Positions 21,119-61,658 of a DNA stretch of 64,000 nucleotides are shown here, piece after piece. Numbering within the stretch: position 1 is the first letter of the stretch; each line of letters begins with the position of its first letter. The stretch covers positions 868,001-932,000 of the forward strand of contig JANVFP010000020.1 in the NCBI GenBank assembly GCA_027919835.1, given 5' to 3'. Origin of the DNA: Lentinula raphanica. Lineage: Eukaryota; Basidiomycota; Agaricomycetes; Agaricales; Omphalotaceae. A model generated the notes under the pieces. The model ran no database searches, was not told the DNA's origin, and saw only the letters and a program-made list of their open reading frames with translations. Made by a program: the position numbers and the translations under genes.

Positions 21119-22297
21119 TAGATATACAGCTGAGGATGTAAGATCTATGCGAAGTAGCCCGATAAGTCTCGAGCACAGCTTCACGAAGTACACCGATACT
21201 CTCTCAAAGGGTCAAATTTTGGCTCTGGGGGCTATTATTTTTTAATAATATATATATATTAATTGTATTTTCCATTAAAAAAAATAGGAAAAAAATATAC
21301 AGCTTTGCGAAGCGGTGTGGCAAATATCACAAATGATGGCATCAGCCAAAATGATGAGATCTGCATCATTGATTTGCCTTTTTGGGAAAAAAAAGATTTA
21401 TATTGAAACCAGGGGTCATGAGAGTGCATATGAGTGTTTAAAAATAGGAAATATCATATAGGAAGCATATAGGGTATCCCAGGCACATCAAAGTGGCCTA
21501 AAAAGGAAATTGGTCTAAAAATAGAACTTGATCTCATCAGGTAGCAAAAAATCTGAAAAAATCATAAAAATACTCAAAAAATTCAGGGTCACCTCGTTGG
21601 CCCTGAAAACGCAAAATAAAAAAAAATACGCGACAAGTGTAAAAATTTTTATCACTCCAAATCATACCAGATCCTCTATACATTGAGTATATATGATGTA
21701 CATGCTATTTTTAGCACCCCTAGTACACTCAGACACTTAGAATGGCTTATATCATTCAATATATTCAGCACACTCAATGCTTATTATACTTAACACACTT
21801 AACAATGAAAAAACTCGGAATGGTAGTAATGTATATTATACTCAACACACTCAACAATGAAAAACCTCAAAACAGTGTTCATGTGTATTATACTTAACAC
21901 ACTTAACACACTTAACAATGAAAAAAAACTCGGAATAGTAGTAATGTATATCATACTCAACACACTCAACAATGAAAAACCTCGAAACAGTGTTCATGTG
22001 TGTTATACTCAACACACATAATGCACTTAACAATGAAAACTCTCAGAACAGTGTCCATGTGTATTATACTTAACATACTCAACACACTTAACAATGAAAA
22101 AACTCAGAACAGTGTTCATGTGTGTTATAACACACTTCATCAATCAATATAACATACTTAACAATCAAAACTCGGAGTAGTGTTATCACAAATTATACTT
22201 AACACACTTCATCAGTAAGTATAACATACCTTCAATAGGACATTGTTATACTATAACACACTTATAACAACGAGTTTTGGGCGCTTATGGGCGCTTA

Positions 22298-22507
22298 TTT
22301 GGGGTTTTTGAGTCGAAATTCATGAATAGTACACTCAATAATTTTTGTATGGGCTCCATATTGTGTCAGGATGTTGTCTATATCATATTCTTCTAGATAT
22401 AATTTGGAGAACTTGAAAATACAACCTGTGTGGCTAGCTATACTATAATCTTTTGTGATATAACAGTGTTTTATGTAAATGCCAATGCATATGTCCATGT
22501 AATGCAA
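22298..22507 (-). CDS. Conserved 70-codon ORF in left arm of element A
   Basis: Reads from MHYMDICIG through YIKHCYITKDYSIASHTG to EFRLKNPK and a TAA just before the GGGCGCTTAT words. It is the mirror copy of the ORF at 22740. Counterparts at the same place occur at 42735, 53867 and 60287, and in more diverged form at 34721. I recognise no domain. The part entering the element centre differs between the arms but stays in frame. It may be a real peptide, or an open frame carried by recent copies. Confidence 0.35.
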
Positions 22508-22739
22508 GTATACTGATGCTGGTCCATCAGGAAAGCACTCCTACAGTCTACTGGCAGTGTCTGTACATGGTTCAGATAGTTATCATAAAGGTTGGACACT
22601 GTGATACACATGTACATGTTTCATGTACACTATAGATGTCTACACTTAAATGTAACAATAAATGTCATATTCAATGACCCCCATTACAGATCTCTTGGAT
22701 GACTCTTTTCATGACCCAGCAGCAGTTTGACTTCATAAC

Positions 22740-22943
22740 ATGGGTGTATGCACTGTCATTTACATAAAACACTGTTATATTACAAAAGATTATAGTATAG
22801 CTAGCCACACAGGTTGTATTTTCGAGTTCTCCGAATTATATCTAGAAGAATATGATATAGACAACATCCTGACACAATATGGAGCCCATACAAAAATTAT
22901 TGAGTGTACTATTCATGAATTTCGACTCAAAAACCCCAAATAA
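22740..22943 (+). CDS. Conserved 67-codon ORF in right arm of element A
   Basis: Starts MGVCTVIYIKH, continues LEEYDIDNILTQYGAHTK and ends EFRLKNPK. Same protein as the left-arm copy apart from the N-terminus, with stop at the same motif. The two genes diverge from the element centre, so the 275-bp centre would have to hold any promoters. Confidence 0.35.
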   Translation: MGVCTVIYIKHCYITKDYSIASHTGCIFEFSELYLEEYDIDNILTQYGAHTKIIECTIHEFRLKNPK

Positions 22944-24118
22944 GCGCCCATAAGCGCCCAAAACTCGTTGTTATAAGTGTGTTATAGTATAACAATGTCC
23001 TATTGAAGGTATGTTATACTTACTGATGAAGTGTGTTAAGTATAATTTGTGATAACACTACTCCGAGTTTTGATTGTTAAGTATGTTATATTGATTGATG
23101 AAGTGTGTTGTAACACACATGAACACTGTTCTGAGTTTTTTCATTGTTAAGTGTGTTGAGTATGTTAAGTATAATACACATGGACACTGTTCTGAGAGTT
23201 TTCATTGTTAAGTGCATTATGTGTGTTGAGTATAACACACATGAACACTGTTTCGAGGTTTTTCATTGTTGAGTGTGTTGAGTATGATATACATTACTAC
23301 TATTCCGAGTTTTTTTTCATTGTTAAGTGTGTTAAGTGTGTTAAGTATAATACACATGAACACTGTTTTGAGGTTTTTCATTGTTGAGTGTGTTGAGTAT
23401 AATATACATTACTACCATTCCGAGTTTTTTCATTGTTAAGTGTGTTAAGTATAATAAGCATTGAGTGTGCTGAATATATTGAATGATATAAGCCATTCTA
23501 AGTGTCTGAGTGTACTAGGGGTGCTAAAAATAGCATGTACATCATATATACTCAATGTATAGAGGATCTGGTATGATTTGGAGTGATAAAAATTTTTACA
23601 CTTGTCGCGTATTTTTTTTTATTTTGCGTTTTCAGGGCCAACGAGGCGACCCTGAATTTTTTGAGTATTTTTTATGATTTTTTCAGATTTTTTGCTACCT
23701 GATGAGATCAAGTTCTATTTTTAGACCAATTTCCTTTTTAGGCAACTTTGATGTGCCTGGGATACCCTATATACTTCCTATATGATATTTCCTATTTTTA
23801 AATACTCATATGCACTCTCATGACCCCTGGTTTCAATATAAATCTTTTTCTTTCCCAAAAAGGCAGATCAATGATGCAGATCTCATCATTTTGGCTGATG
23901 CCATCATTTGTAATATTTGCCACACCGCTTCGCAAAGCTGTATATTTTTTTCTATTTTTTTAATGGAAAATACAATTAATATATATATATTATTCAAAAA
24001 TAATAGCCCCCAGAGCCAAAATTTGACCCTTCGAGAGAGTATCGGTGTACTTTGCGAAGCTGTGCTCGAGACTTATCAGAGTACTTCGCGTAGATTCTAC
24101 AGCTATGGGTGAGATATA

Positions 24119-24640
24119 GAGAATGCCCGAAATCTGCCCAATGAAAGCAGCCACTGTGAACAATGAGCCTCACATCGTCTTTGACCACATCTCTACTTCT
24201 CACCGTTTCGGTCCCTTCTAATCAGAGGACCAATGAAATCATTGTTCTCCCGCCAGAGTTCTTCATCTAACACCTTGATTGTTCTAAGCTAATTTAGGAC
24301 AGAAGAATCATAGGAAATGATAAAACGGGTGGAAAGAGGGAGACAGAAGATCAAGCTCAAGGGTGATGAGGAAGAGGAAGGATGAGACGGTCAACCCAAT
24401 GCTCTTTCCTCAGCCTGTCTCTCCCCTCCTCCACATCCTCCGATCCTCCCCGCCACCTTTTTCTTCGCAACATCACTCATTCTTCCCTCTGCTTCTCCCC
24501 GATCTGCACCTATATGGCAGTATCATTGACCCTCCAAGGTTTGCACTCATACACTGTCGCTGATGCAATAGGCTACCCGTCTCCCCCTGACGGTGTTGAT
24601 TCGTTTGGGCAATAAAAGCTTCATTATGAGGAGAAAGGGA
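24119..24640. other. Unassigned stretch right of element A
   Basis: Follows the flanking duplicate of element A. Holds purine-rich and pyrimidine-rich runs and short frames without motifs. No gene called. Confidence 0.35.
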
Positions 24641-25380
24641 AGAGAGCTTCCTTGAGACTCGACCAACCTTCATTGGCCTTGACGTCAGTTTGGGTGAAGT
24701 GGAGGGTGCTGACGTGTTGAGGAGGATTTGTTTCAACGTGTAGTAGCGATCGGCATGGGAGTTTGAAGAACGAGCATGATTCTTGGTAGATAACAAGAGG
24801 GAGATAAGTGGGGGGCCGGACGAGGAGAGATGCTTACTATAGAACTGCACATCCATTCAACCCAAACCTCAGCCGGATCCCACCAGTTTGAGCAACAATT
24901 CTCATGAGTGACTGCCGCACAGAGAATGCAGAAAAGATGCACAATAATTGACATCTGTACATGGAGAAGAACGGTGACCAGAGAAAGAAGGGCAATGAAA
25001 CGAGTTTCTGTAGGAATTCCCAAAAACGAGAGGTGAAAGCGGGGGGAAGGGTGGAGATGGTGGACAAAGAAGGGAGAAAGTCTCGAAGAGAAAAGTGTAT
25101 CCTGTAAAAGAAAACCCAACCACGCCTGCAGTTCATCAGAAACCTTGTTCACTCCTTTCAAGTTCGCCTTGGCCCTGGGTTCTTTCTGACATGTTGCCCC
25201 TCCGGCGTTCTGAGCTGTGTCGATCCTTGTTTATTGCGAGTGTTGGCTGAAAAAAGGGGTATTTGTAGCTGCCAGCTGGAGGCAGAGTGAACACTGCACG
25301 TCCTCTTGAGAAGACCAAGAGCTCGATAATGTTGGAGAAATGGCAGAGGGGAAGGGGAGACAGTGTGGAAGTGCTGTCTG
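24640..25380. repeat. Repeat R, copy 2
   Basis: Same orientation as 20260-21118 with the same order of blocks, much diverged. The two copies lie on either side of palindromic element A. Reading frames on the minus strand (up to 142 codons) are rich in Leu/Ser/Phe with no domain, and are not supported by splice structure. Confidence 0.45.
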
Positions 25381-25384
25381 CCTC

Positions 25385-26510
25385 CATCAGCAAAAATGTT
25401 CTGTGCTCAGGGCTACCCAACATAGATCTCAAAGAATTTCAGGTTGCCTGGGGTCTCTAGAGTCTTCAGTGTCTCTGGTGTCTCCTGAGACACCCCCCAA
25501 AACCTAAAGCCTTTGGAGTTCCTTGAATGTCTTTCAAAATCTCTGAATATCTTTGGATATCTTTAAAAATCTTTGAATATCTTTAGAAATCTTTGAATAT
25601 CTTTGAGGATCTCTGAAAGTCTTTGAGAGATATTTAGATATCTTTCAAAGATTTTTCAAAGCTCTTTAATGAGTTCAAATGATTCAAAAAGTTATTCAAT
25701 CACTTTTACTTCATCATATCATACTCTATCTATTGCTCTTATATTGACTGTATCTACTAACACTCATATATTATGATATACTGTATTTGAACTTGATAAT
25801 TATTGATTTCGGAATACATTCTGATTATATGTATCATATATATATTATTACAACCATTATATATGTGTAATGTTAATAAATATAATAAATAACAATGTAT
25901 ATAGTATATGTTATTATAGCTATATTCAGATTTTGACCTGGTGAAGTTCTTTTTGATTGTACACAGTCTACGGTGGCAGGTCATGTGAGCACCTATATCA
26001 TTGACAACTGTGAGTTGTAATATTTTAACTGATATCTACAGTGTATTACTACACTATATTATCTTCTAGATGTTAAGATGCAATAATATCTTATTGCTAT
26101 TCAATATCTCAAATTTCAAATTTTTGAAAACACTCAAAGTCTTCAGAGAAGCTCAAATATCTTTCAAAGATGTTCAAAGATATACAAAGATATTCAAAGA
26201 TCTTTCAAAGATATTCAGAGAACATGAAAAATCTCAAGAAATCTTCAGGATATTGGAAAAAACCTAGGCAGCTCAGGGTATCCAAGCTCTCTAAAGTATC
26301 TGAAGAGCTCAGGTTATTCCCAAAAACCTAGAGCATTTTAGAGATCTCTGAGTTACCTTTGAACAACCCAGAAACAATTCTAAAGAATCTCAAGGAGACC
26401 AAATTTTGAGCCCTTTTCCCAAAGAGTTCTGAGAGTCTAGATACTTTAGACTTTTGGGGGAATCTCTGGTGTCTTTGAAAGACCTCTGGTCAGGGGTATT
26501 TTTCCTGATG
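25385..26510. mobile_element. Long CATCAG-family element (1126 bp)
   Basis: Begins CATCAGCAAAAATG and ends GGGTATTTTTCCTGATG, with TC on each side (25383-25384 and 26511-26512). The left half has many TCTTTGAATATCTT units and the right half AAAGATATTCAAAGAT units, i.e. the same word in inverted order. The AT-rich middle includes GGTGGCAGGTCATGTGA. A second copy starts at 44266. No coding sequence. Confidence 0.8.
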
Positions 26511-26512
26511 TC

Positions 26513-27540: not shown

Positions 27541-27795
27541 CATCAGCAAAATCACTTCTGGCCTGGAGTCTCTTAGAGACTCCAGGCATACCCCCCCTTT
27601 TCCTACAGGCTCTAGAGTCTCTGAGAGAGCTTGAGAGAGCTTGAGAGACTCTAGAGAACTTGAAAAGACATTCAAAGAAACTTCAAATTTCCTCAGGGTG
27701 CCTAGAAACTCTCAGAGACTCTAGAGCCTGTAGGAAAAGGGGGGGTATGCCTGGAGTCTCTTAGAGACTCCAGGCCAGAAGTGATTTTGCTGATG
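27541..27795. mobile_element. CATCAG-family MITE 4 (255 bp) with long, nearly perfect ends
   Basis: About 88 bp at each end are inverted copies (CATCAGCAAAATCACTTCTG...), the best-preserved member in the window. GG flanks both sides (27539-27540 and 27796-27797). Inside each arm is a further palindrome GGAGTCTCTTAGAGACTCC. The middle holds AGAGAGCTTGAG repeats. Probably a young insertion. Confidence 0.85.
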
Positions 27796-27797
27796 GG

Positions 27798-29188: not shown

Positions 29189-29199
29189 AATTCAGCAAA

Positions 29200-30572: not shown

Positions 30573-32954
30573 ATGAGCACATTCAATGCAACGTGGTCTC
30601 ATGCAAGGAATCAGGGTGAATATATCAGTGGTAAGTCAATTTTCAACCAGGAAAGCTGGTTATCTTAAATTTCACAGGAAGCCGATCTTATGACTATAGG
30701 GAGAAGTATGAGGATGATGCTAAAAAAGAATGGCTAGCAGAAAATGCTAGAGTTTGGAAAGTATATTTAGATGAAGCAGAGCTGAAAGATAATGAATTAT
30801 TGGCAGGGTTTAAGGACACAATTGATGCACTTTTAATTTTTGTAAGGTTCACCTTCATTGAAAAGGTATTCTTCACTCATAGCTCTTCTAGGCAGCACTT
30901 TTTTCTGCAGTTGTGACATCCTTCATAATTTCCACAATAACTTCCCTTCAACCCAACTATACACAAATTACTGCAGTCCTTATGGTGGAGCAGATAAATT
31001 TGCTAAGAGCTGCTGGTAACTTGACAGCAATCAACCCTATCCCTGATTCCAATGTCAATCTTGACATGACAACTCCTGGCACAAAAGACCTTTGGATCAA
31101 TGGTCTATTTCTTGCAAGTTTATCACTTTCTCTTGCCACTGCACTATTATCAGTGTTAGTCAAACAGTGGCTTCAAGCATACACTGCTATATCCTCAGGA
31201 AACGCAAGGGAGCAGGCTATGCTTCATCAATTTAAATATTCAGGATTAATTCAATGGAAAGTCCCTGAAATAATTGGAACTCTACCACTCATTTTGCATA
31301 CATCCCTGGGTTTATTTTTATTGGCCTGTCATTGTATATTCATGAGCTACACACTAGTCTCTCTTGGATTGTAATTGTTGTGACAATCATTGCTGGCATA
31401 TTGTATGTAGGAAGTATCAGTTTGCCTTCTTTCTGGCTTAATTGCCCATACAAAATTCCACTGCTTTTCATCCCAAGCAAATATATCATATATATGATTA
31501 ATGTCATTGTATGGGCTATTAAATGGACCAACAGCAAGCTTTGGCATCTTCAAAAGGAGGATAAATATCCACAACTCTCCTTGAAGTCATTGCATAATGC
31601 TGAAATTGATTATATCCATGATCTGGACATTCTGCAATTGCTTCTCATAGATATTCTCAATAGTCTTTGTTCAATTTTTTCAAATCAATCAATTCAGTAT
31701 ATAGCAGCACAAGCATTCAGTGGAGCATTCTTTTCATTTCCAGAGAATTTATGGTCTAGTTTTGATAATCAGGAAAGATTCCAGGAAAATTGTGCAGAAA
31801 AGCTTGAATATTACTTGGGATCTATTCAGAGAGCCATATGGAAAGGCCTTGCTATTGATAAAGATGAAAATGTACAACATTGGATAGATATAATCAAGGA
31901 GTGGACCAGAAAGTCGGCTTCCAATACTAGTCCATTGAAGGAATTTGATACAAATCTAAAAATAAAGCAGTTTTTGGAAGCTGTTGTGCAGGACAATCTT
32001 GAGACTGTGAAATTCCTAGTGCAAGATAAATATGTAGATATTCATACTGAAAAAATTTCCATAACTGCATTGAATGATGCTGCATTGCTTGGACACTTGG
32101 AAATGGTAAAGTTTCTGGTTGAAAAAGGAGCAGACATCAATGCTCAAAACCAGTTTGGTAGTACTCCATTGCTTGCTGCTATAAGCAGAGGCCACTTAGC
32201 AATTGTGGAATTGCTGATTGAGAAGGGTATAGATATTGAATCTCAAGACCAGTTTCAAAATACTGCATTGGAAATTGCTATACAAAGAGACCACTTAGCA
32301 ATTGTGGAATTGCTGATTGAGAAGGGTGCAGATATTGAATCTCAAAACAGATTTCAAAATACTGCATTGCATACTGCTATAGACAGAGGCCACTTAGCAA
32401 TTGTGGAATTGCTGATTGAGAAAGGTGCAGATATTGGATCTCAAGGCTCGTTGCAACAAACTGCATTGCATACTGCTGCAGCTTCAGGCCACGTAGAGAT
32501 TGTAAGATTGCTGCTTGAGAAAGGTGCAGATATTGAATCTCAAGATGGATTACAAAATATTGCATTGAATACTGCTGCAGCCTGGGGCTACTTAGAGATT
32601 GTAAGATTGTTAATCGAGAGCAGCTCAAATGTTGAATCTCAAGATAGTCTTTATAGTATTGCATTGCGAGCTGCAGCTACCTCAGGTCATTTAGAGGTTG
32701 TAAAATTATTAATCAATAAAGGTGTAGATGTCAAAGCTCAAGGTGGTCATTATGGTATTGCATTGATAGCTGCTGCAGTTAGAGGTCATTTGGAGATTGT
32801 GAGGTTTTTAGTTGAAAAAGGTGCAGACATCAGAGTTCAACATGATATGTATGAGACTGCATTGCAAGCTGCTGAGCTCTTTGGCCATTCAGAAATTGTC
32901 ACATTCCTCACTCATTTGGGTGACAACACTACTGACACAATATTAGAACTGTGA
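30573..32954 (+). CDS. DUF6535 membrane protein fused to ankyrin repeats, one frameshift
   Basis: Exons 30573-30630, 30678-30841 and 30892-32954, with canonical introns. The start MSTFNATWSHARN is followed by RVWKVYLDEA and the DUF6535 core: membrane segments ALFSAVVTSFIIST and INGLFLASLSLSLATALLSV, the KQWL motif, FKYSGLIQWKV, and a further membrane pair ending before NCPYKIPLL. After a linker come about ten 33-residue ankyrin repeats (from about 31960), with consensus GHLAIVELLIEKGADIESQ, to the stop at 32954. Near 31306-31325 the frame shifts by one base: the protein reads HTSLG in one frame and FIFIGLSLYI in the next, as if one A were missing. Ankyrin repeats bind proteins, and DUF6535 has no known function. 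A membrane-anchored recognition or scaffold role is inference. Confidence 0.8.
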
Positions 32955-33574: not shown

Positions 33575-33582
33575 GTTTGACT

Positions 33583-36565
33583 CACTTCAGGCACCCACCA
33601 AACAGGCCTTCTTAGGCCAAAAAAATGGTGTACCTAAATAGGCCTAAGAGGCCCAAAATATGGGTAGGCTACCCTGGGGTCCTTAAGGTAGGTAGCTACC
33701 ACAGGCTGGGTAGCTACCCCCATAGTGTGAGGTTTTGAGATGGGTAGCTACCCTACTTAGGGTGCCAGGGGTCCTTCTGAGGTAGCTACCCTATGTTTTT
33801 GAAAAATTGTTAGGTGTAGTTTACTAATACTCTGGTAACATTAGTTATCTCATATCTTATGCAACAGGATAGAGCCTTTCAAGATGTACTTGATCACAAT
33901 TACTAAACTTGAACAAAGTGAATACAGGTAGCTACCCTCTGTAAAAGGTGAATCAGGGTAGCTACCCACTCTACAAAATTAATTAGGGTAGCTATCCCAC
34001 ACTCCTGGGTGGCTACCTACTTACAACTTACAAGGTCAATCATGGTACCTACTTAATACACTCATTGCCCATAACATCAAAAATATAATACAGTAGTGTG
34101 TATTGAACCCATAGTTAATACAATAAATTGCAAGAGTAATGATATGTATTATACTTGATACACTTAAACACTGGTAACAGTGTAAGAACTCAGATCTGCA
34201 TTACTGCATCACTTCAGGCACCCCCCAACTAGGTCTTCTTAAACTACTATATGTCAGTATTCATACCTAAGAGGCCCCCCAAATGGGTAGGCTAACTCCT
34301 ATCAGGGTAGCTACCCATGGAGGAGTTTGAGTTGGGTAGCTACCCATGGGAGAATTTAAGTTGGGTAGCTACCCAAGATATTTTACATGAGGGGTAGCTA
34401 CCCACCATAATGCTTTAGTTGGATCAACTTGGATGATGGATCACTCAATTTCATTCTTAGTATATTAATTTCCTTATACACATTAGACTGAGCAACTAAA
34501 AACTTACATATAATATACTTTAACATACTCAATACTTGCACTTCATTATTCAATATAATACTCACATGTACACTGAACAATCAAATAATCAGAGCAGTAT
34601 TATCACTAATTACACTTGTTACACTCAACATATCTCATCAATAAATATAACACACCTTCAATACAACATTGTTATACAATAATAGGCATATAGCAATGAT
34701 TTTTGGGCGCTTATGGGCGCTTATTTTGGCTCTTCAACTCGAAATTCTTGAATAGCACATCCTATAATTTTTATATAAGTCTTATATTGTGTCAGGATGT
34801 TGTTCATATCATATTTATCAGGAATTAAATTTGAGAACACAGTAATCCATTTTCTAGGGCAGGATTTATAGTGATCTTTTGTAATGTAACAGCAATTTGG
34901 ATAAATTACACTGCATATATCCATGTTTTGCTGGGAGACTGATGTTATCTCATGTGAAATTTACTGCAACAGTCCACTGACAGTGTCTGTACATGCTTTC
35001 AGTGGTCATTATGATGATTGGACTCTGCATCCTACATTTACATATTTCATGTACACTTGAAATATGGATAGGTGCATGTAACTGCAGATGTCATAATCAA
35101 TGACCCCCATGGTGAATCTCTTAGCTGTATCACATGGAGGTATCCTAGAATGGGTCATAGAGTGTTGCTTTTTATGCCCCAGTAGCAATTTGGCTGCATG
35201 ACATGGATATATGCAGTATGATTTACACAAATTGCTGTTACATCACAAAAGATCAATATATATCCTGCTCTAAAAATGAATTTCTGTGTTCTTGGATTTA
35301 AATCCTAAGAAGTATGATAAGAACAACATCCTGAGACAATATAAGACTTATATAAAAATTATAGGATGTGCTATTCAAGAATTTCGAGTTGAAGAGCCAA
35401 AATAAGCGCCCATAAGCGCCCAAAAATCATTGCTATATGCCTATTATTGTATAACAATGTTGTATTGAAGGTGTGTTATATTTATTGACGAGATATGTTG
35501 AGTGTAACAAGTGTAATTAGTGATAATACTGCTCTGATTATTTGATTGTTCAGTGTACATGTGAGTATTATATTGAATAATGAAGTGCAAGTATTGAGTA
35601 TGTTAAAGTATATTATATGTAAGTTTTTAGTTGCTCAGTCTAATGTGTATAAGGAGATTAATATACTAAGAATGAAATTGAGTGATCCATCATCCAAGTT
35701 GATCCAACTAAAGCATTATGGTGGGTAGCTACCCAACTTAAATTCTTCCATGGGTAGCTACCCAACTCAAACTCCTCCATCGGTAGCTACCCAAACAAAA
35801 ATCAGCATTGATGGGGTAGCTACCTATTGGTCAGGTAGCTACCCACCTAAACATCAAATATGACATGCAGTAATGCAGTTCTAAGTTGTCCACTGTTAAA
35901 AGTGTTAAGTTCATCAGGTATAACACATATTATCACTGTTCCAATTTTGTAAATTGTTAGGTGTATCAATTGTGTTGAGGATAATATACAGTACTACTGT
36001 GTTAAATTTTCAGATATTATAGGCAATGAGTGTGTTAAGTAGGTACCATGATTTACCTTGTAAGTAGGTAGCCACTCAGGAGTGTGGGGTAGCTACCCTA
36101 ATTGATTTTTTAGAGTGGGTAGCTACCCAAATTAACTTTTAGAATGGGTAGCTACCCTGATCAACTTTCCAGAGTGGGTAGCTATCCTGATTGACTTCTC
36201 AGAATGGGTAGCTACCCTGATTCACCTTTTACAGAGGGTAGCTACCTGAATTCACTTTGTTAAAGTTTAGTAATTGTGATCAAGTACATCAAAGGCTCAA
36301 GCCTGTTTTATAAGATATGAGATGACTAATGTTACCAGAGTATTAGTAAACTAAACTTAACAATTTTTCAAGGGGACCCCTGGCACCCTAAGTAGGGTAG
36401 CTACCCATCTCAAAACCTCACACTATGGGGGTAGCTACCCAGCCTGTGGTAGCTACCTACCTTAAGGACCCCAGGGTAGCCTACCTATATTTTGGGCCTC
36501 TTAGGCCTATTTAGATACACCATTTTTATGGCCTAAGAAGGCCTATTTGGTGGGTGCCTGAAGTG
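33583..36565. mobile_element. Giant palindromic element B (2983 bp) with exact 8-bp target duplication
   Basis: Termini CACTTCAGGCACCCACCA and its complement; GTTTGACT flanks both sides (33575-33582 and 36566-36573). Outer arms (about 33660-34400 and 35715-36470) hold roughly 40 copies of GGTAGCTACC-type words. Inner arms carry the AATAAGCGCCCATAAGCGCC words and the small ORF, as in elements A and C. Centre near 35075. The left arm also contains a second copy of the terminus at about 34205 (CACTTCAGGCACCC) with no match at the mirrored place, so a related element has inserted or the end was duplicated. No transposase. Confidence 0.9.
34721..34924 (-). CDS. Diverged copy of the conserved 67-codon ORF in element B
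   Basis: Reads MDICSVIYPNCCYITKDH, then a variable stretch, DKYDMNNILTQYKTYIKII and EFRVEEPK. Same length and same stop as the copies in A, C, D and E, although roughly half the residues differ. On the minus strand from 35230 there is another frame (LLLGHKKQHSMTHS, CDTAKRFTMGVIDYD) that also has a counterpart in element E at 53543 (LLLGHEKSYPTTYS, WDTAKRSVMGVIEYD). Frame kept at this divergence argues for past coding function. Confidence 0.4.
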   Translation of the reverse strand: MDICSVIYPNCCYITKDHYKSCPRKWITVFSNLIPDKYDMNNILTQYKTYIKIIGCAIQEFRVEEPK

Positions 36566-36981
36566 GTTTGACTGTATGTGAACCACTGACTCAAAGCTCT
36601 ATTCTTCCATCCTATATATTGTATGTAGGCTGACTAGTCAGACACAATAATGTGTGTTATTGAGATGTGGTTCATGTTGGCATTGGTAGATAGGATGGTG
36701 TCTGGCTGCTGTTACGAGGTAAAACAGGTGCTGAGTTATGAGTTGAGAACAGAAGGGTTTAGGTTTATTTGGACCAAGTATCCACACACCTCAACCATCA
36801 TCTGCTTGCAAAAGGATGAACTGTAGCAAGGACAAAGACTCAGTGCCTATTGCTTATGCAGGCTGTTTCTCTCTTTGTCCACCACCAATCACTGGCACCA
36901 CCCTTCTTCACTCATCTCTGTCTCCCTATCCATCATGAACCAAATTGTAGTCATTAATCAATGATTCCATGGCTTGCCGAC

Positions 36982-42375: not shown

Positions 42376-42426
42376 GGCTTGAAAGCAGCTTTTAGTGGCT
42401 GAGAGCTCAGTACATTTTTCCTGATG

Positions 42427-43112
42427 TTTTATGTAAATGCCAATGCATATGTCCATGTAGTGCAAGTATACTGATGCTAGTTCATGAGGAAAGCACTCCT
42501 ACAGTGTACTGGCAGTGTCTGTACATGATTCAGGTAGCTATCATAAAGGTTGGACACTGTGATACACATGTACATGTTTCATGTACACCATAGATGTCTA
42601 CACTTACATGTAGCAATAGATGTCATATTCAATGACCCCCATTATGGAAATCTTGGCTGTATCACATAGAGTTAGCATAGAATAAGCTGTAGGACGACTC
42701 TTTCCATGACCCAGCAGCAGTTTGACTTCATAACATGGGTGTATGCACTGTCACTTATATAAAACAGTGTTATATCACAAAAGATTATAGTATAGCTAGC
42801 CCCACAGGTTGTATTTTTGAGTTCTCCAAATTATATCTAGAGGGTTATTATATAGACAACATCCTGACACAATATAGAGCCCACAAAAAAATTATTGAGT
42901 GTGCTATCAATGAATTTCAACTCAAAAACCCAAAATAAGCACCCATAAGCACCCAAAACTCATTGTTATAAGTGTGTTATAGTATAACAATGAGTGTGTT
43001 ATGTATATCAAGTAATATTGTTCCAACCTTTTGACCGTTAAGTGTGTTTAGTAAGTATAGTGACTGATAACACTGTTTTGAGTGTTTATTGTCAACTGTG
43101 TTAGACATAATA
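42427..43112. mobile_element. Palindromic element D, centre and part of right arm only
   Basis: Begins abruptly at TTTTATGTAAATGCCAATGC, the inner edge of the left arm in element A, and continues through the centre, the small ORF (42735-42938, 67 codons, ending QLKNPK), the AAGCACCCATAAGCACCC words and the first TTAAGTGTGTT units, to about 43112. Left arm and outer right arm are missing. It abuts the right terminus of the 5.07-kb element. Confidence 0.7.
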
Positions 43113-43117
43113 CATAG

Positions 43118-49125: not shown

Positions 49126-49571
49126 TGTGATGACAGATTCGCGGGATCTATGAGCCTATGTGAGTACACATGAGAGCCTCAGAACAAACACAAGTTCTCG
49201 TTGGTTACCTATGAGCCTATGTGAGTACACGCAAGAGCTATAGATAACTATGTTTAAGATATATAGACAGGGAACCAGAGTAAGGAAAAGACGTACCCTC
49301 AGAACGAACACAAGTTCTGAGGGGCATCGCACGATTTCGTATACGTATAAATAGATAGTGAAAATTGTAAGTAAAATTTTACAGACCTTAAGCGAGTGAC
49401 TCGAGTCTGGAACTAGGGTACCCTGAAACCTAGGAATGAAACTGACGCAGGGAGCAGTGCTCGCAGAAGTATATGCTGAACAATGGTCCCAACAGCTGAG
49501 TGTATGTGTTTCCTCAGAACGCCAAACGCTCACGTGAGAAAACACACTACGCGTTGCATCCAAACTCAACA
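49126..49571 (-). repeat. copia 3' LTR (446 bp)
   Basis: On the minus strand it starts TGTTGAGTTTGGATGC and ends CTGTCATCACA. The polypurine tract CCAGGGGGAG lies directly upstream (49572-49581). Internal short repeats include GAGCCTATGTGAGTACAC twice and AACACAAGTTCT twice. The junction with the left neighbour is clear because the interrupted repeat has an intact copy at 25385. Confidence 0.85.
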
Positions 49572-52310
49572 CTCCCCCTGGCGTTCTGAGTACCACCAGT
49601 CCAAGCCGAGAGCCAATACGATATGCCGGTGTTTATCTTTTGGAAGAGATTTGGTCATGATGTCGGCAAGGTTTTGATTGCTTTGAACCGGGTGGACGGA
49701 TACAAGACCGCGTGCCACAACGTCGCAAATGAAGTGATAGCAGATGTCGATATGTTTAGAAAGACTGTGTTCTTTGTTTGTTTTGGTGAGACTGATCGCC
49801 CCTAGGTTGTCACAAAAGATGTCTATAGGAGAGTCGCCCAAGCCCATATCAATCTCATCAAACCAACTTCGAGTCCACAAGGCCTGCTGTACACCTCTCG
49901 ACATCGAAATATACTCCGATTCCATGGAGGATAGAGCAACGGAGGATTGTCGTTTCAATGACCAAGATACGGGAGCGCCATTCACTAGGAAGAGGTAACC
50001 TGACATGGACTTGCAGGTCACCTTGTCACCTGCCCAATCTGCATCGACATAACCTATGGGTTTGATGGTGCCAGAGGATCCAGGGCGATATACAATGCCA
50101 TAATGAATGGTCGCAAAGATGTACCGACAAAGCTTGATGGCAAGCTCCCAATGGACTCGCAAGGGAGCGTCCTGCACGGTGGACAACACACTACAAGCGA
50201 ATACAATGTCAGGACGTGTACAGCTGGCACCCCACCAACAGCATCCCAGAATCCCTCGGTAAGGCTTGTCCTTCATAAACTCAATATCTTCGGAGGTCCG
50301 TGGTGTTAGTGAGGACAAGGAGAAGTTAGGCAGCAGAGGAGTGAATGAGGGATGAAGTTGGTCGATGATTCCGAAGATTCGGAAGGCATTTACGAAGAAG
50401 GGAGCTTGGGAAATACATATGGACCCATCGTTTCGATGATCCACGGTAAGACCCACTAGAAAGTTTTTGTCTTTAACATCGGTGAGGTCCCAAATTCTAA
50501 ACCCATTGACTACACCCTCGGCTTCGGAGGATGAGGAAGAACCACTGAAGACATCGTCCGTATGTACAGAGGCAATGGAGTACTCGTTGGTAGAAGGGTC
50601 GCGTCGATATCTGATGCATGGATCTGCTCGAGATGATTTAAAGCCTAAGCATTGGAACTGACCCTCCAAATCCTTGTACCAAATATGTCCAGCTTGCACT
50701 ATACCATACAATGGTTTGTGCATTAAGCAGACTTTATCCTCCTCCCCCTTAGCAGTGAACCCGGTAGGTTGATGCATGTAGACAGGCGGGTCTTTCGGGA
50801 GATTTCCGTTGAGATAAGCGGCGGAGAAATCCCGCTGACGAGTTTGAAGATGCTTAAATGCACAAATGGCAATGAGGAGGCGGACCGATTCACATCTGGC
50901 CACCATAGACCAGCTCTTTGAAAAAATCCACTCCGGGGATCTGCATATCACCTCTAGCCACGTATCATGCCTTCCTCTTCAAGATGATGCCCTCACCATC
51001 AACTTTGAGATCATACACCCACATTCCGCTTAGAATCCGAGCATCATCAGGTCGATCAACCAATGACCAACACCCACGCTTGATGAGAGAGTCAATCTCT
51101 GCCTGCATAGGGGGTAGCCATCCTTCGGAGTCTCTCATTGCTTCTGCATATGACCTGGGGATGCTGACCTCTCCTCCCCCTTTGATGGTGCTGGCCAGTA
51201 TGACAATGTTCGCCCACTCTTCATTCTCTTGGCGGGCAGTAGCTTTGTCCTTCTCAAACTCCATGGATTGCAGTAGGCAAGCAGACGGGACGCGAGTACG
51301 CGTGGAACGACGAAGAGGAATTGGAGCTGGAGGACCAGATTCAGAAGAAGAGTGAAGATCAGAGGAAGAGGGAGTAGAATCATTCGAGGAGGTGGATTCG
51401 GCAGAAGACTTCGAAGTTTCGGCACTCTGCCGTTGATCCGAAACGAGGTCCGAGTCACTTGGTTGATTTTGATTATTGGCTAAGTCTGAATCCTTGACGT
51501 CCTCTGCTGCATGCTGAAGAGTACAACAAGGAATCCCCTCCTCAAATACGACGTCTCGAACAGGATAAACCCCCTTTCGCCTAATATCCCATATCCGATA
51601 CCCTCGACGTCCAACGTAACCCACGATGCGACCTTCCCAGGCTTGTCTACCAAGCTTCCCCTCGAGGTGATCAAGGTCGGTAACCCAGCATTTACAACCC
51701 CAATGACAGAGATGCGACACATTCACCTTTCTCCCACTGGCTTTGAACCACTTCTCCCAAGGAACAACACCCGGATGACGATTAGTGGGGATCATTCCAT
51801 GAATATAGCAATACACAGAACTAGCCTCGGCCCAGAAACGATGGTCGAGGTCAGAATCCTCTATCATTGCACGTACTCCAGAGATAATGGTGAGATTTGC
51901 ACGTTTGACCTGCCCGTTGGCTGCCGATGATGCCTTAGGAACTTTCTTGACGAGGATTCCACGGTTAGCACACCATTCATCAAACAGCTTGTTATCGAAC
52001 TCTTTACCCATATCGATTTGAAAGATACGGACCTGACGACCAGTTTGGCGTTCTGCCATCGCAACAAACTGTTCAACAAGATGTAGGATGACCGTGGCTT
52101 CTTTGGTTGCACTGAAGGAGGGAAAGGGAATGCCTGTGCCATCGTTGCAAGCCAGAAGCATGTAGTAAGCACCACCAAGGCTTTTCGTACGAGCTCGACC
52201 TCAGAGGTCAAGACTAACTCATTCAAGTGGCTCCAAGGCAGGTACAACAATGTCATAAAATGGGATTCTCTTTGCCTTGGCAAGAAGGCACACCTCACAC
52301 TTTCCACAGA
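49566..52310 (-). pseudogene. copia pol: integrase, reverse transcriptase, RNase H, decayed
   Basis: From 52310: CGKCEVCLLAKAKRIPF (end of the integrase zinc finger), integrase core with SLGGAYYMLL, IFQIDMGKEFDNKLFDEW, KASSAANGQVKRANLTI, then the linker FWAEASSVYCYIHGMIPT. Reverse transcriptase: DFSAAYLNGNLPKDPPVYMH, PLYGIVQAG, and SVHTDD where active copia has YVDD. RNase H: GYVDADWAGD, SSMESEYISM, IFCDNLGAISL, IMTKSLP. The stop lies inside the LTR at 49566. Defects: TGA after ILKRKA (about 50967), another stop near 50900, and Lys in place of the catalytic Glu of integrase (GQVKRAN instead of GVAERAN). So it is not functional. Confidence 0.8.
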
Positions 52311-53060: not shown

Positions 53061-53401
53061 CACAGCTGCCCAATCATACTGTACAGGTCATAGAAAATTT
53101 CAAATGTCTGTTGATTTCAATAAACAAATACTATCTTTCCTTTCTACTACAACCACGACGCGTGAATGGCCAGCCAAATCAGCCAGAATGAGAATGAAGC
53201 GATATCAATGGTCAAAAAGCTTCCCGTTCATATATTGGACGCGTTCCGTAAGCATGTTAGTCTTCTTGCGTGTGGTATCCTTCTTTGTACATGATATTAA
53301 CATTCCCATTCATTCAGTCATTCGACGCCGACTTCATTCAGAAGCATCCCAGCATCTTTCTCACATGGGATTGGATCAATATCGACGCGTTGAGAGACTG
53401 T

Positions 53402-55238
53402 GTTTTTGAGTCGAAATTCATTAATAGCACACTCAATAATTTTTGTGTGGGCTCTATATTGTGTCAGGATGTTGTCTATAGCATATTCCTCTAGATATAA
53501 TTCAGAGAACTCGAAATTACAACCTGTGAAGCTAGCTATACTATGATCTTTTGTGATATAACACTGTTTTTATGTGAAAGACAGTGCATACACCCATGTT
53601 ATGAAGTCAAATTGCTGCTAGGTCATGAAAAGAGTTATCCTACAACCTATTCTATGCTAACTCTATGGGATACAGCCAAGAGATCTGTAATGGGGGTCAT
53701 TGAATATGACACCTATTGTTACATGTAAGTGTAGACATCTATGGTGTACATGAAACATGTACATGTGTATCACAGTGTCCAACCTTTATGATCACTAGCT
53801 GAATCATGTACAGACACTGCCAGTAGACTGTAGGAGTGCTTTCCTCATGAAACAGCATCAGTATACTTGCACTACATGGACATGTGCATTGGCATTTATA
53901 TAAAACACTATTATATCACACAAGATCACAGTATAGCTAGCCACACAGGTTGTAATTTCGAGTTCTCTGAATTATATCTAGAGGAATATGATATAGACAA
54001 CATCCTGACACAATATAGAGCCCACACAAAAATTATTGAGTGTGCTATTAATGAATTTCGACTCAAAAACACCAAATAAGAGCCCATAAGCGCCCAAAAC
54101 TCATTGTTATAAGTGTGTTATAGTATAACAATGAGTGTGTTATGTATATCAAGTAATATTGTTCCAACTTTTTGACTGTTAAGTGTGTTAAGTATAGTGA
54201 CTGATAACACTGTTTTGAGTATTTATTGTCAACTGTATTAGATATAATACATATCACTACTGTTCTGAGTTTTAGTATGTTAGGTGTGATAAGTACCAAG
54301 TGTACTGAACATATTGAGTAATAAAAATTGTTCTGAGTGTTCAAGGGTACTAGGTGTGCTAAAAATATCATGTACATCATATTTACTCAATGTTCTCAAT
54401 CTGGTATGATTTTTGAGTAATATGAGCTATTCTTAGTGATTAAGAGTGCTAGAGGTGCTAACAATAGCATATACATCATATATACTAACTTTATAGTGGA
54501 TTTGGAATGATTTGGAGTGATAAAAATTTTTACACTTGTCGCATATTTTTTTTTATTTTGCATTTTCAGGGCCAATGAGGCACCCCTGAATTTTTTGACT
54601 ATTTTTATGATTTTTTTCAGATTTTTTGCTACAAGATGACATCAAGTTCTATTTTTAGCAAAATTTCCTTTTCAGGTAATTTTGATGTCCCTGGGGTATC
54701 CAGTGCCACATAATAACCTATTTTCAATTATATATAATATTTATCTATTTTTAGACACTCATATGTACTCTGAACCAATATGTTCTATAAATAGAATATT
54801 TAACATTTTTGATCTCTTACCTCATTATTACCTTTCTGGTTATTTTTAGTATTTTTATTATATTTTTATCATTTTAATTATCTATCTAGACCCTACATTG
54901 TATTTTGCTATATAAGGATATTTTGCATCATGTGATTTTTAACCTTCTTTTTGGTAACCTAGACCTCCCTGAATTTTTTTGGTATTTTTCCGATTTTTTA
55001 ACCATTTTATTTACCTATTTACATCATATATATGTAATATTTCCCAAAAGGGTAATCATTTAAAAACCCCCTCGGAATAATATTAGGACCCCCGGGCATT
55101 TCAAGCAAGTTTTCGGGCCATTCCAGCACCCCCCGGTGAACTTTTTAGTACTCTGTGAAGTTCACAGGAAATAATACAATACACTACCGTGAACTTCACA
55201 GTGTGCTTTAAAGATTCTTTACTGCTACAGGTGAGGGT
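53402..55238. mobile_element. Palindromic element E, left arm cut short
   Basis: Starts inside the left arm (GTTTTTGAGTCGAAATTCA), passes through the centre (with ORF LLLGHEKSYPTTYS at 53543) and the right-arm ORF (53867-54079), then the AAGCGCCC words, TTAAGTGTGTTAAG units, CACTTGTCGC and an AT-rich outer region. It ends with CTGTGAAGTTCACAG-type palindromes and ACTGCTACAGGTGAGGGT near 55238, like the CTACAGCTACGGGT end of element C. The MULE-like coding sequence stops at its left edge. Confidence 0.75.
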
Positions 55239-57764: not shown

Positions 57765-57914
57765 AAAGAAGCCGTTGAAGAGTTTACTGCATGGATTGGC
57801 AGTCTGAATCAGCCGCAGGTTACAGGTGTGTGTTAACTTAAAGAAGCCGTTGAAGAGTTTACTGCATGGATTGGCAGTCTGAATCAGCCGCAGGTTACAG
57901 GTGTGTGTTAACTT
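57765..57914. repeat. 75-bp perfect tandem duplication in the MULE-like gene
   Basis: 57765-57839 and 57840-57914 are identical. The unit begins AAAGAAGCCGTTGAAG and spans the end of an exon (EAVEEFTAWIGSLNQPQVT) and the start of the next intron (GTGTGTTAACTT). The duplication therefore doubles a splice donor. Confidence 0.9.
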
Positions 57915-58643
57915 GTATGATTGCCCAAAATCCAACTTAGTCCACCACCAACAGCTTGGTGGAATCACAAATTACAGCCATTTATTCTGCCGGGAATCAT
58001 CCAATGTTGCTCAAGCATGAGCGCTGAGACCTGGGCAATGACGGATTCAACCACGAACATGAATGAATCTCAACATGCTTGGACCAACAAATTCACTGGG
58101 ACCAAACTTTCACTGGTCGAGGCCATTCTAACGTAAGTCTGGTTGTGTCTGTTCCAGCACTGACTCATTGTTATCTATATTCAGTGCTATGAAACTTGAC
58201 TTCGACACTTTCAACTCGGTCCAAGCATCTCTACAAAGTGGCGTTCTCAAGAACGCTTACAACTCTGAGTTTGACCGAACAATGCGCAAAGTCAATTGGC
58301 AAGCGGCGAAGACCAGGAAACGGAAGACGCGCAACCTTCAGAATGAACAAGTCATCAGTCTTCGACAGGGAATAGCAGACTTGAAGGCTACGACGAAAGC
58401 TCTCGAAGATCAGTTGAAGGCAGCTACAGGATCACAGCCAAGGACCCGGAAAAGCCATGCGGAGTCAAGCTCAAGTGGTTGCGCACCTGCAGTTAAGGAG
58501 TTCCAAGCACGAGCTCATCAAGCTGTGGCACCTTATTCAGTAACAGCAGCCGGTATGCCCTTATCTGTTTCATTCATGTTTTTGTCTTCTAACTGAGTTA
58601 CAGAAAACACCACTGCTACGACTTCAGCTCTTTCCGATATCAC

Positions 58644-61600
58644 CAGCTGAAGCTGTAAGAGCTTCGCGAAGTAGTCCGATAAGTCTCCAAGATTACTTTG
58701 CGAAGTAACCCGAGTGGCTCTCGAAGCTCAAAAAAACCTTTCGGGCAGGCCAGTAGGGCTCCGGGGGGTGCTCGGCTATTTAGTATATTTATTAATATTC
58801 AATAATTCTTTTATTATTTAATAGGTATATTATAATAAATCTACTTCGCAAAGCTATGCTGCACTTCGCGAAGTGACTACGTTTACGACAATCATGAAAT
58901 CAGGTAAATTAGGGTTACATCATTATGTCATTGATTTCCTTTTTGGGTTATAGTATTTTTGAATAGAAAAATGCATGTTATGACATCATTGATTTTGGGA
59001 TGCTAAAAATCACAGATGAATCCAAAAATGGCTATAGGGAGGTACTGGCTACCTTAGGCACATCAAAATTGCCTAAAAAGGAAATTGGTCCAAAAATAGA
59101 ACTTGATCTCATCTGGAAGCAAAAAATCTGAAAAAATCATGAAAAATACTCAAAAAATTCAGGGTCACCTCATTGGTCCTGAAAACGCAAAATAAAAAAA
59201 AATACGCGACAAGTGTAAAAATTTTTATCACTCCAAATCATACCAGATCCTCTATACATTGAGTATATATGATGTACATGCTATTTTTAGCACCCCTAGT
59301 ACACTCAGACACTCAGAATGGCTTATATCATTCAATATATTCAGCACACTCAATACTTAACACACTTAACAATGAAAAAACTCGGAATAGTAGTAATGTA
59401 TATCATACTCAACACACTCAACAATGAAAAACCTCGAAACAGTGTTCATGTGTATTATACTTAACACACATAATACACTTAACAATGAAAAAACTCGGAA
59501 TAGTAGTAATGTATTTCATACCCAACGTGACACTCAACAATGAAAAACCTCAAAACAGTGTTCATGTGTATTATACTTAACATACTCAACACACTTAACA
59601 ATGAAAAAACTCAGAACAGTGCTCATGTGTGTTACACTTAACACACTTCATCAATCAATATAACATACTTAACAATCAAAAACTCGGAGTAGTGTTATCA
59701 CACATTATACTTAACACACTTCATCAGTAAGTATAACATACCTTCAATAGGACATTGTTATACTATGACACACTTATAACAACAAGTTTTGGGCGCTTAT
59801 GGGCGCTTATTTGGGGTTTTTGAGTCAAAATTCATTAATAGCACACTCAATAATTTTTGTGTGGGCTCTATATTGTGTCAGAATGTTGTCTATATCATAT
59901 TCCTCTAGATATAATTCGGAGAACTCGAAAATACAACCTGTGTGGCTAGCTATACTATGATTTTTGTGATATAACAGTGTTTTATGTAAATGCCAATGCA
60001 TATGTCCATGTAATGCAAGTATACTGATGCTGGTCCATCAGGAAAGCACTCCTACAGTCTACTGGCAGTGTTTTACATGATTCAGATAGCTATCATAAAG
60101 GTTGGACTCTGTGATACACATGTACATGTTTCATGTACACTATAGATGTTTACACTTACATGTAACAATAGATGTCATATTCAATGACCCCCATTACAAG
60201 TCTCTTGGCTGTATCACATAGAGTTAGCATAAGATAGGTTGTAGAATGACTCTTTTCATGACCCAGCAGCAGTTTGACTTCATAACATGGGTGTATGCAC
60301 TGTCATTTACATAAAACACTGTTATATTACAAAAGATTATAGTATAGCTAGCCACACAGGTTGTATTTTCAAGTTCTCCGAATTATATCTAGAGGAATAT
60401 GATATAGACAACATCCTGACACAATATAGAGCCCACACAAAAATTATTGAGTGTGCTATCAATGAATTTCGACTCAAAAACCCCAAATAAGCGCCCATAA
60501 GCGCCCAAAACTCGTTGTTGTAAGTGTGTCATAGTATAACAATGTCCTATTGAAGGTATGTTATACTTACTGATGAAGTGTGTTAAGTATAATGTGTGAT
60601 AACACTACTCCAAGTTTTTGATTGTTAAGTATGTTATATTGATTGATGAAGTGTGTTAAGTGTAACACACATGAGCACTGTTCTGAGTTTTTTCATTGTT
60701 AAGTGTGTTGAGTATGTTAAGTATAATACACATGAACACTGTTTCGAGGTTTTTCATTGTTGAGTATGTTGAGTATGATATACATTACTACTATTCCAAG
60801 TTTTTTCATTGTTAAGTGTGTTAAGTGTGTTAAGTATAATACACATGAACACTATTTTGAGGTTTTTCATTGTTGAGTGTGTTGAGTATGATATACATTA
60901 CTACTATTCCGAGTTTTTTCATTGTTAAGTGTGTTAAGTATAATAAGCATTGAGTGTGCTGAATATATTGAATGATATAAGCCATTCTGAGTGTCTGAGT
61001 GTACTAGGGGTGCTAAAAATAGCATGTACATCATATATACTCAATGTATAGAGGATCTGGTATGATTTGGAGTGATAAAAATTTTTACACTTGTCGCGTA
61101 TTTTTTTTTTATTTTGCGTTTTCAGGACCAATGAGGTGACCCTGAATTTTTTGAGTATTTTTCATGATTTTTTCAGATTTTTTGCTACCTGATGAGATCA
61201 AGTTCTATTTTTGGACCAATTTCCTTTTTAGGCAATTTTGATGTGCCTGAGGTAGCCAGTACCTCCCTATAGCCATTTTTGGATTCATCTGTGATTTGTA
61301 GCATCCCAAAATCAATGATGTCATAACATGCATTTTTCTATTCAAAAATACTATAACCCAAAAAGGAAATCAATGACATAATGATGTAACCCTAATTTAC
61401 CTGATTTCATGATTGTCGTAAACGTAGTCACTTCGCGAAGTGCAGCATAGCTTTGCGAAGTAGATTTATTATAATATACCTATTAAATAATAAAAGAATT
61501 ATTGAATATTAATAAATATACTAAATAGCCGAGCACCCCCGGAGCCCTACTGACCTGCCCGAAAGGGTTTTTTGAGCTTCGAGAGCCACTCGGGTTACTT

Positions 61601-61658
61601 CGCGAAGTAATCTTGGAGACTTATCGGACTACTTCGCGAAGCTCCTACAGCTACGGGT
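58644..61658. mobile_element. Giant palindromic element C (3015 bp)
   Basis: Arms about 58644-59990 and 60310-61658 are near-perfect inverted copies. The outer zones hold ACTTCGCGAAGT palindromes and GGGCAGGCCAGTAGGGCTCC; the middle holds the AACACACTTAACAATGAAAA units; the inner part has GGGCGCTTATGGGCGCTTAT and the small ORF. GATATCAC is found on both sides (58636-58643 and 61659-61666), consistent with an 8-bp duplication, though this word is part of the palindrome GTGATATCAC, so the exact boundary is less certain than for B. It lies in the C-terminal coding part of the MULE-like gene, whose frame resumes beyond it. No transposase. Confidence 0.85.
60287..60490 (+). CDS. Conserved 67-codon ORF in right arm of element C
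   Basis: MGVCTVIYIKHCYITKDYS, ending AINEFRLKNPK and TAA before AAGCGCCCATAAGCGCC. Almost identical to the copy at 22740. The left-arm counterpart (about 59825-60020) is broken by a one-base loss near 59964 (TTTTTGTG for TCTTTTGTG), so only one arm is open here. Confidence 0.35.
   Translation: MGVCTVIYIKHCYITKDYSIASHTGCIFKFSELYLEEYDIDNILTQYRAHTKIIECAINEFRLKNPK

What the first reader, a model, noticed from the sequence alone, without database searches (positions are those of the whole stretch)
21127..61658. A family of ~3-kb near-palindromic elements with 8-bp target duplications
Elements A (2984 bp), B (2983 bp) and C (3015 bp) each consist of two inverted arms of about 1.35-1.4 kb around a ~275-bp centre. 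B is bounded by exact GTTTGACT duplicates, C by GATATCAC, A by TAGATATA/GAGATATA. Partial copies are D (42427), E (53402) and F (8570). Lengths agree within about 1 % although B's outer arms have no similarity to those of A and C. Seen: arms, lengths, flanks. Inference: a mobile family moved by an unidentified transposase making 8-bp duplications (hAT, P and several other superfamilies do so).
Basis: seen in the sequence. Interest (0 to 1): 0.8.

Follow-up and report, generated by a model that had tools for sequence, protein, structure and literature searches.

The report
Palindromic transposons that swap their ends
The repeats are a family of gene-less, nearly palindromic jumping DNAs in what looks like a mushroom-type fungus; they share one palindromic core but carry different outer arms, and their ends match much larger elements that encode a known transposase, KDZ, which suggests that one passenger core has moved by borrowing more than one enzyme.

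Summary
Two points change. (1) A and C duplicate 7 bp, not 8: 25 of 33 complete A/C-clan copies have exact 7-bp duplicates; A is AGATATA, C ATATCAC. B makes 8 bp: 10 of 14 copies, 8 of 12 independent. One B copy sits inside a C-type element with a clean empty site. (2) The "unidentified transposase" is most likely KDZ (Kyakuja-Dileera-Zisupton). A/C-type ends bracket a 9.3-kb KDZ-bearing element with an exact 7-bp duplication. B's 13-bp tip brackets KDZ-bearing elements of 8.7-23.5 kb; all 7 pairs whose ends were fetched have exact 7-bp duplications, so B's own 8-bp donor was not found. The end types examined enclose one homologous palindromic core. B and T3 have other outer arms than A/C, joined at (nearly) mirror-image positions; arms are homogenised within copies, yet the two tips of A/C elements stay different. 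Anatomy resembles Drosophila Galileo; the enzyme differs. Class: new variant of a known kind, KDZ-moved foldback elements with exchangeable outer arms.

The parts
21120..21126 (.). 7-bp target duplication AGATATA, left of A
21127..24111 (+). Element A, 2985 bp, A-type ends (end 1 CAGCTGAGGATGTAAGATCT; end 2 CACCCATAGCTGTAGAATCT)
24112..24118 (.). 7-bp target duplication AGATATA, right of A
33575..33582 (.). 8-bp target duplication GTTTGACT, left of B
33583..36565 (.). Element B, 2983 bp, ends CACTTCAGGCACCCACC on both sides; 23 copies of GTAGCTAC in its outer arms
36566..36573 (.). 8-bp target duplication GTTTGACT, right of B
34539..35587 (.). B's copy of the shared palindromic core (about 71% identical to C 59644-60653)
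58637..58643 (.). 7-bp target duplication ATATCAC, left of C
58644..61659 (+). Element C, 3016 bp (end 1 CAGCTGAAGCTGTAAGAGCT; end 2 CACCCGTAGCTGTAGGAGCT)
61660..61666 (.). 7-bp target duplication ATATCAC, right of C
59644..60653 (.). C's copy of the core shared with B
59787..59811 (-). 25-bp block AATAAGCGCCCATAAGCGCCCAAAA, left arm of C (place read)
60486..60510 (+). same 25-bp block, right arm of C (place read)
8570..10177 (+). Fragment F: intact end 1 (CAGCTGAAGCTGTAAGAACT) at 8570, core-arm piece 9145-10177, no end 2 found
42425..43116 (+). Fragment D: central piece, no ends found
53399..54797 (-). Fragment E: centre plus one arm, no ends found

Best explanation
A, B and C are non-autonomous, palindromic (foldback) cut-and-paste DNA transposons moved in trans by KDZ-superfamily transposases. 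Shown: each is an inverted-arm palindrome; most complete copies have flush exact duplications (7 bp for CAGCTG.../CACCC... ends, 8 bp for CACTTCAGG... ends); an empty site exists. Shown: the same end sequences bracket much larger elements with a KDZ transposase domain inside. Inferred: KDZ proteins cut at these ends and paste the palindromes elsewhere. Shown: the end types examined (C, A, T3, B, one AAAACT element, fragment F) enclose one homologous core; relative to A/C, the outer arms of T3 and B are different sequence on both sides; private mutations are shared by the two arms of one copy. Inferred: arm-to-arm gene conversion, or hairpin-templated repair, copies a change from one arm to the other, so a new outer arm gained on one side can become symmetric, and the core can pass to another KDZ transposase. 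The A/C tips stay unequal (end 1 versus end 2) although the arms behind them are homogenised; inferred: transposition needs one of each.
For: Duplications: 25 of 33 complete A/C-clan copies exact at 7 bp, swapped-flank control 0 of 1056; B clan 10 of 14 exact at 8 bp, three of them probably one duplicated insertion, so 8 of 12. Empty site: of nine B loci whose flanks were joined, L064 aligns 392/392 bases at 97% to a C-type copy; L067 aligns to core across the joint at 82% with gaps; seven gave no A/C match. KDZ: of 100 listed CACTTCAGGCACC ends (142 exist), 10 have a KDZ gene 1.8-4.0 kb inward in opposite orientation, 0 in the other, 1 outward; contig-shift control on 93 of the ends, mean 0.44, 0 of 1000 reach 10. 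Of 100 listed CAGCTGA.G ends (129 exist), 4 have a same-oriented KDZ at 6.4-7.0 kb, 0 the other way, 0 outward; control on 95 ends, mean 0.14, 0 of 1000 reach 4. hAT: 1 and 0 (distance windows chosen). All 7 large pairs whose ends were fetched have exact 7-bp duplications; C7:674351-683687 has A/C-type ends and exact AGTATGG. KDZ domain of one of the seven: Pfam PF18758, 1.3e-56. Precedent: Kyakuja makes 7-bp duplications with CA..TG ends, Zisupton 8 bp (PMC12730594, passages); Cryptococcus KDZ1 8 bp, KDZ2/3 4-8 bp (PMC12810828, passages). Arms: variants seen in exactly two arms lie in the same element for A 42/43 (chance 3.3), C 20/53 (2.3), T3 7/18 (2.0), B 30/81 (9.0). Breakpoints from the two ends: C-T3 362/363, C-B 1001/1007, L020-L066 948/946. 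Tips unequal in all 24 A/C-clan elements aligned; from the listed ends, 45 mixed-end pairs of 2.0-4.5 kb (43 of 2.9-3.6 kb) versus 4 same-end pairs of 1.5-4.5 kb.
Against: The palindromes encode no transposase, so the link to KDZ is by ends and duplication length only. KDZ-bearing elements with B's 13-bp tip make 7 bp, B makes 8; no 8-bp KDZ donor was found (the B-specific search did not complete). Only one KDZ element with both A/C-type ends was found, and its KDZ match has four in-frame stops, introns or decay. Kyakuja is described as lacking TIRs; these have long inverted arms. Outer arms of A and C are diverged versions of each other, not replacements (80.7-87% over the whole arm). Two of five breaking comparisons are less symmetric: L020-L034 260/348, L034-L062 997/1052. 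Many doubletons are shared by same-side arms of different copies (C 27/53, T3 8/18, B 45/81), and arms closest to their own partner number 3 of 24 (C), 12 of 14 (A), 5 of 10 (T3), 5 of 10 (B), so homogenisation is uneven.
Confidence: 0.75

Rival explanations
1. hAT transposases move them (hAT usually duplicates 8 bp; a fungal hAT7 group duplicates 7 bp).
For: Duplication lengths fit (hAT7 in PMC12730594, passages); 78 hAT dimerisation-domain matches exist in the genome; one 2.8-kb pair of CACTTCAGGCACC ends, C4:1802288-1805044, encloses a hAT match, not read.
Against: hAT genes show no repeated place inside the ends: 1 of 100 B-type ends (by my reckoning from the lists C1:493518, not read) and 0 of 100 C-type ends in the windows where KDZ gives 10 and 4.
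Confidence: 0.1
2. P-superfamily (Galileo-like) foldback elements.
For: Closest anatomy: long inverted arms with tandem repeats, 7- or 8-bp duplications, arms of one copy 98-100% alike, chimeric copies without duplications (PMC4168063, PMC3573991, passages).
Against: Matching ends bracket KDZ genes here. A P or THAP transposase was not searched for.
Confidence: 0.04
3. Outer arms are exchanged by nested insertion: the core element inserted near the centre of another palindrome, whose outer ends then move the composite. (About how ends change; not exclusive with KDZ as mover.)
For: B copies do insert into A/C and B elements (L064, L067, L074); in the winC-winB and L020-L066 comparisons the core boundary read on the B side falls at CACTTCAT on both arms, its first 7 letters being those of the B/KDZ tip; a second B-like tip lies inside B at 34210.
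Against: Only some nested insertions seen are near a centre; CACTTCATCA also recurs in a tandem unit inside C, so the boundary may be coincidence; no target duplication was noticed at the core boundary.
Confidence: 0.3
4. Palindromes are assembly artefacts.
For: Long inverted repeats are hard to assemble (general knowledge).
Against: 35 copies (25 A/C-clan, 10 B-clan) with exact flanking duplications, and copy-specific differences between arms.
Confidence: 0.01

Closest known systems
Kyakuja (KDZ superfamily) DNA transposons of Agaricomycotina (PMC12730594, passages seen)
   Same: 7-bp duplications, 5'-CA..TG-3' ends; a KDZ domain in the large ends-matched elements here
   Different: A/C are gene-less palindromes with about 1.35-kb inverted arms; the published Kyakuja are transposase-bearing and described as having no TIRs
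Zisupton, and Cryptococcus KDZ1-3 (PMC12730594, PMC12810828, passages seen)
   Same: 8-bp duplications (Zisupton, KDZ1; KDZ2/3 4-8 bp) as in B; KDZ transposase family
   Different: KDZ1-3 are about 9-11 kb with 139-241-bp TIRs and encode the transposase; B is a 3-kb gene-less palindrome and its 8-bp donor was not found
Galileo (P superfamily) of Drosophila (PMC3573991, PMC4168063, passages seen)
   Same: foldback anatomy, 7/8-bp duplications, arm homogeneity, chimeric copies, TIRs of one subfamily around the interior of another
   Different: different transposase superfamily; in the passages seen the subfamilies are not split by duplication length
Mutator/foldback element Tm1 (PMC3169594, search listing only)
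   Same: foldback element by its title; long inverted arms (recalled)
   Different: recalled, from no call: MULE transposase and about 9-bp duplications

Membership tests
KDZ superfamily (as non-autonomous derivatives) | KDZ transposase domain encoded by the element | tested here: not met
   No ORF of 130 aa or more inside A, B or C; hence non-autonomous at best
KDZ superfamily (as non-autonomous derivatives) | Ends shared with KDZ-bearing elements | tested here: met
   C7:674351-683687 for A/C-type ends; seven large elements for B's 13-bp tip
Kyakuja | 7-bp duplication and CA..TG termini | tested here: met
   A/C clan 25 of 33; KDZ-bearing elements 7 of 7 and 1 of 1
Kyakuja | no terminal inverted repeats | tested here: not met
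   Long inverted arms, although the two tips differ at 4-6 positions in the first 17 bp
Zisupton | 8-bp duplication | tested here: met
   B clan 10 of 14
Zisupton | ends shared with a Zisupton-type transposase element making 8 bp | tested here: inconclusive
   Ends-matched KDZ elements make 7 bp; B-specific end search unanswered; KDZ subgroup not resolved by a tree
hAT | hAT transposase within matching ends | tested here: inconclusive
   1 and 0 of 100 ends in the windows used; one 2.8-kb end pair on C4 encloses a hAT match; neither case read
P / Galileo | P/THAP transposase within matching ends | not tested
   no search made
Foldback elements (structural class) | long inverted arms with short middle and target duplications | tested here: met

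The most novel reading that the evidence does not exclude
One palindromic core is a transposase-hopping parasite: without a transposase gene of its own it has changed its outer arms at least twice (T3 and B relative to A/C) and has been mobilised by enzymes of two cutting classes (7 bp and 8 bp), because the palindrome copies a newly gained arm onto its other side while transposition keeps the A/C tips asymmetric.
Probability: 0.4. Interest if true: 0.68.

Novelty: new variant of a known kind. Interest (0 to 1): 0.52.

Why it matters
It gives KDZ transposons abundant non-autonomous partners (43 end pairs of 2.9-3.6 kb are visible from exact patterns in partly capped lists alone; some are the copies counted), suggests which ends KDZ enzymes bind, and shows two duplication lengths around the same 13-bp tip. 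It also offers a natural series in which non-autonomous elements appear to change transposase by symmetric replacement of outer arms, akin to what was proposed for Galileo, and testable here with many copies. Palindromes of this size may also promote rearrangement: 8 of 33 complete A/C-clan copies lack duplications.

Tried and rejected
hAT as mover was tried first (Pfam PF05699) and put second. An 80-aa open frame in both core arms (for example window 22298-22540 minus) looked conserved: omega 0.32 between B and C consensus, but 107 of 2000 neutral simulations did as well and within clans the codon positions vary evenly (a first try used only 2 B rows and was replaced). Pfam gave nothing above cut-off for it and a protein search gave one short nameless hit; I treat it as a relic at most. 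The large B-type copy L060 was checked as an autonomous candidate; its extra 2.5 kb holds frames that look like host-gene pieces (recalled resemblance, no family search), with nothing I recognise as a transposase. Reciprocal recombinants among the copies were sought and not found.
Full report
What is there. The window is part of contig C20 (868001-932000) of a 49.06-Mb, 75-contig assembly. No call names the species; KDZ abundance and the kinds of protein in the window suggest a mushroom-forming basidiomycete (inference). Self-comparison confirms A, B and C as near-palindromes and D, E and F as partial copies. None of A, B or C holds an ORF of 130 aa or more.

Ends and target duplications. A core query (59700-60250) gave 80 matches from the 40 scored of 511 candidates. 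I fetched the 39 full places outside the window (L009-L047) and added A and C. With end 1 = CAGCTGA.G.TGTAA and end 2 = CACC..TAGC.GTA, 33 complete copies were found (31 loci plus A and C); 8 loci had no complete mixed end pair. 25 of 33 have an exact flush 7-bp duplication and none matches flush at 8 bp; the other 8 differ at 4-7 of 7 positions. Swapped flanks matched 0 of 1056. For B, 20 loci chosen plus the window were examined: 7 loci had no complete pair; 10 of 14 outer pairs have an exact flush 8-bp duplication, none a flush 7-bp match. L069, L072 and L073 share one target sequence (one of them reversed) and are probably one duplicated insertion, leaving 8 of 12. The swapped-flank control for B gave 5 of 272; by my reckoning all five come from L072/L073 and from inner and outer pairs of one locus that share a flank. 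Of nine B loci whose flanks were joined without one duplicate, L064 aligns 392 of 392 bases to a C-type copy (L013) at 97% without a gap; L067 aligns to core sequence across the joint at 82% with 10 gaps; seven gave no A/C match.

The enzyme. Pfam KDZ (PF18758) matches 158 places (the 150 listed were used), hAT dimer (PF05699) 78. CACTTCAGGCACC occurs 142 times (0 in the reversed control), 100 listed; CAGCTGANGNTGTAANANNT occurs 129 times (control 0), 100 listed. KDZ genes lie inside these ends at set distances and orientation; the distance windows were set after seeing the distances. Ten B-type ends have such a KDZ gene; for seven a partner end was listed, and the ends of all seven were fetched: 7 of 7 have exact 7-bp duplications, 0 of 7 match at 8. 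Their lengths are 8.7, 17.6, 14.6, 14.5, 16.7, 23.5 and 17.8 kb. Five of the seven, and B, share CACTTCAGGCACCC and CTTAGG at positions 29-34; the other two have (C)TTAGG one or two bases further in. For A/C-type ends four loci have a KDZ gene at 6.6-7.0 kb; a matching end 2 was found by exact pattern for one, C7:674351-683687 (9.34 kb), with exact AGTATGG duplicates. Its ends match C-type palindromes over about 100 bp at 82-84%; the next 500 bp on the left match none of the fetched copies and look like a reading frame to me. So palindromes and this KDZ element share their ends, not their interiors, as far as read (outer 610 bp on the left, 110 bp on the right).

One core, several outer arms. 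End types seen: C (..AAGAGCT), A (..AAGATCT), T3 (CAGCTGATGTTGTAAAAATACT), AAAACT, F (AGAACT) and B. The centre of one AAAACT-type element (C11, 3132 bp) is 82% identical to C-type copies over 500 bases. A and C align over their whole arms (80.7-87%), so their outer arms are diverged versions of one another. T3 and B differ from A/C outside the core on both sides: breakpoints from the two ends are C-T3 362/363, C-B 1001/1007, L020-L066 948/946, and less symmetric for L020-L034 (260/348) and L034-L062 (997/1052).

Arms evolve in concert. Arms of one copy are at least 97% alike in 21 of 30 elements compared; four comparisons between subfamilies gave 78-87%. Variants present in exactly two arms fall in the two arms of one element in 42 of 43 cases (A), 20 of 53 (C), 7 of 18 (T3), 30 of 81 (B); chance 3.3, 2.3, 2.0, 9.0. 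Against this, others in C, T3 and B are shared by same-side arms of different copies (27, 8 and 45; in A 1), and arms closest to their own partner number 12 of 14 (A), 3 of 24 (C), 5 of 10 (T3), 5 of 10 (B). Homogenisation is therefore real but uneven. Used here: 29 elements; L029, the complete copies without duplications and incomplete copies were left out. Homogenised sites reach to 78 (A), 58 (C), 316 (T3) and 44 (B) bp from the end, yet the tips differ at 4-6 fixed positions within the first 17 bp in all 24 A/C-clan elements. That set was chosen with mixed ends; the end lists, not so chosen, give 45 mixed pairs of 2.0-4.5 kb (43 of 2.9-3.6) against 4 same-end pairs of 1.5-4.5 kb. B's tips are nearly symmetric.

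Reading. The best account is a KDZ-moved foldback family whose palindrome lets a new outer arm spread to both sides. KDZ as mover is strong for A/C (7 bp, CA..TG, shared ends) and moderate for B, whose 8-bp class fits Zisupton or Cryptococcus KDZ elements but whose donor was not found. Nested insertion is a serious rival for how outer arms are exchanged. Galileo is closest in behaviour; chimeric copies, and TIRs of one subfamily around another's interior, are reported there (PMC3573991, passages). Five literature searches listed, by title and start of abstract, no paper on palindromic KDZ-moved elements; the library holds only part of the literature.

Also seen: a 25-bp block, AATAAGCGCCCATAAGCGCCCAAAA, invariant in 16 of 16 aligned core arms; two of 18 arms lacked the seed used to pick rows, so this is partly by construction. 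It may be a protein-binding site (inference).

Noticed in passing
window 6213: A solo KDZ-type tip CACTTCAGGCACCCTTAAATCCTGCCGACTTAGG, nearly the same tip as five of the large KDZ elements; no partner end found in the window within 4 mismatches of the B tip.
   Followed up: partly
window 5822-7443: A separate 1.6-kb inverted-repeat element with ends GCATCAGCAAAACTGACC (187-bp arms, 97%); no obvious target duplication.
   Followed up: partly
L060 (G000:C1:307500-313600), 2350-4869: A B-type element with exact 8-bp duplicates carries about 2.5 kb of what look like host-gene pieces (one recalls Ctf18, from memory) in one arm: possible gene capture or nested insertion.
   Followed up: partly
window 34210: A second B-like tip (CACTTCAGGCACCCCCC) inside B's left arm, after TACTGCAT; L062 has it too; the right arms of both lack it.
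   Followed up: partly
window 22298-22540 (-) and 60281-60487 (+): Open frame of about 70-80 aa in core arms, possibly a relic of a captured exon.
   Followed up: partly
G000:C4:1802288-1805044: A 2.8-kb pair of CACTTCAGGCACC ends enclosing a hAT dimerisation-domain match.
   Followed up: no
window 32033-32905: 99-bp tandem repeat, ankyrin-like by eye, inside a 561-aa open frame (31269-32954).
   Followed up: no
window 49566-52200 (-): Copia-type retrotransposon polyprotein frames, apparently broken (read by eye).
   Followed up: no
window 62562-62759: Tandem array with an 11-bp period.
   Followed up: no
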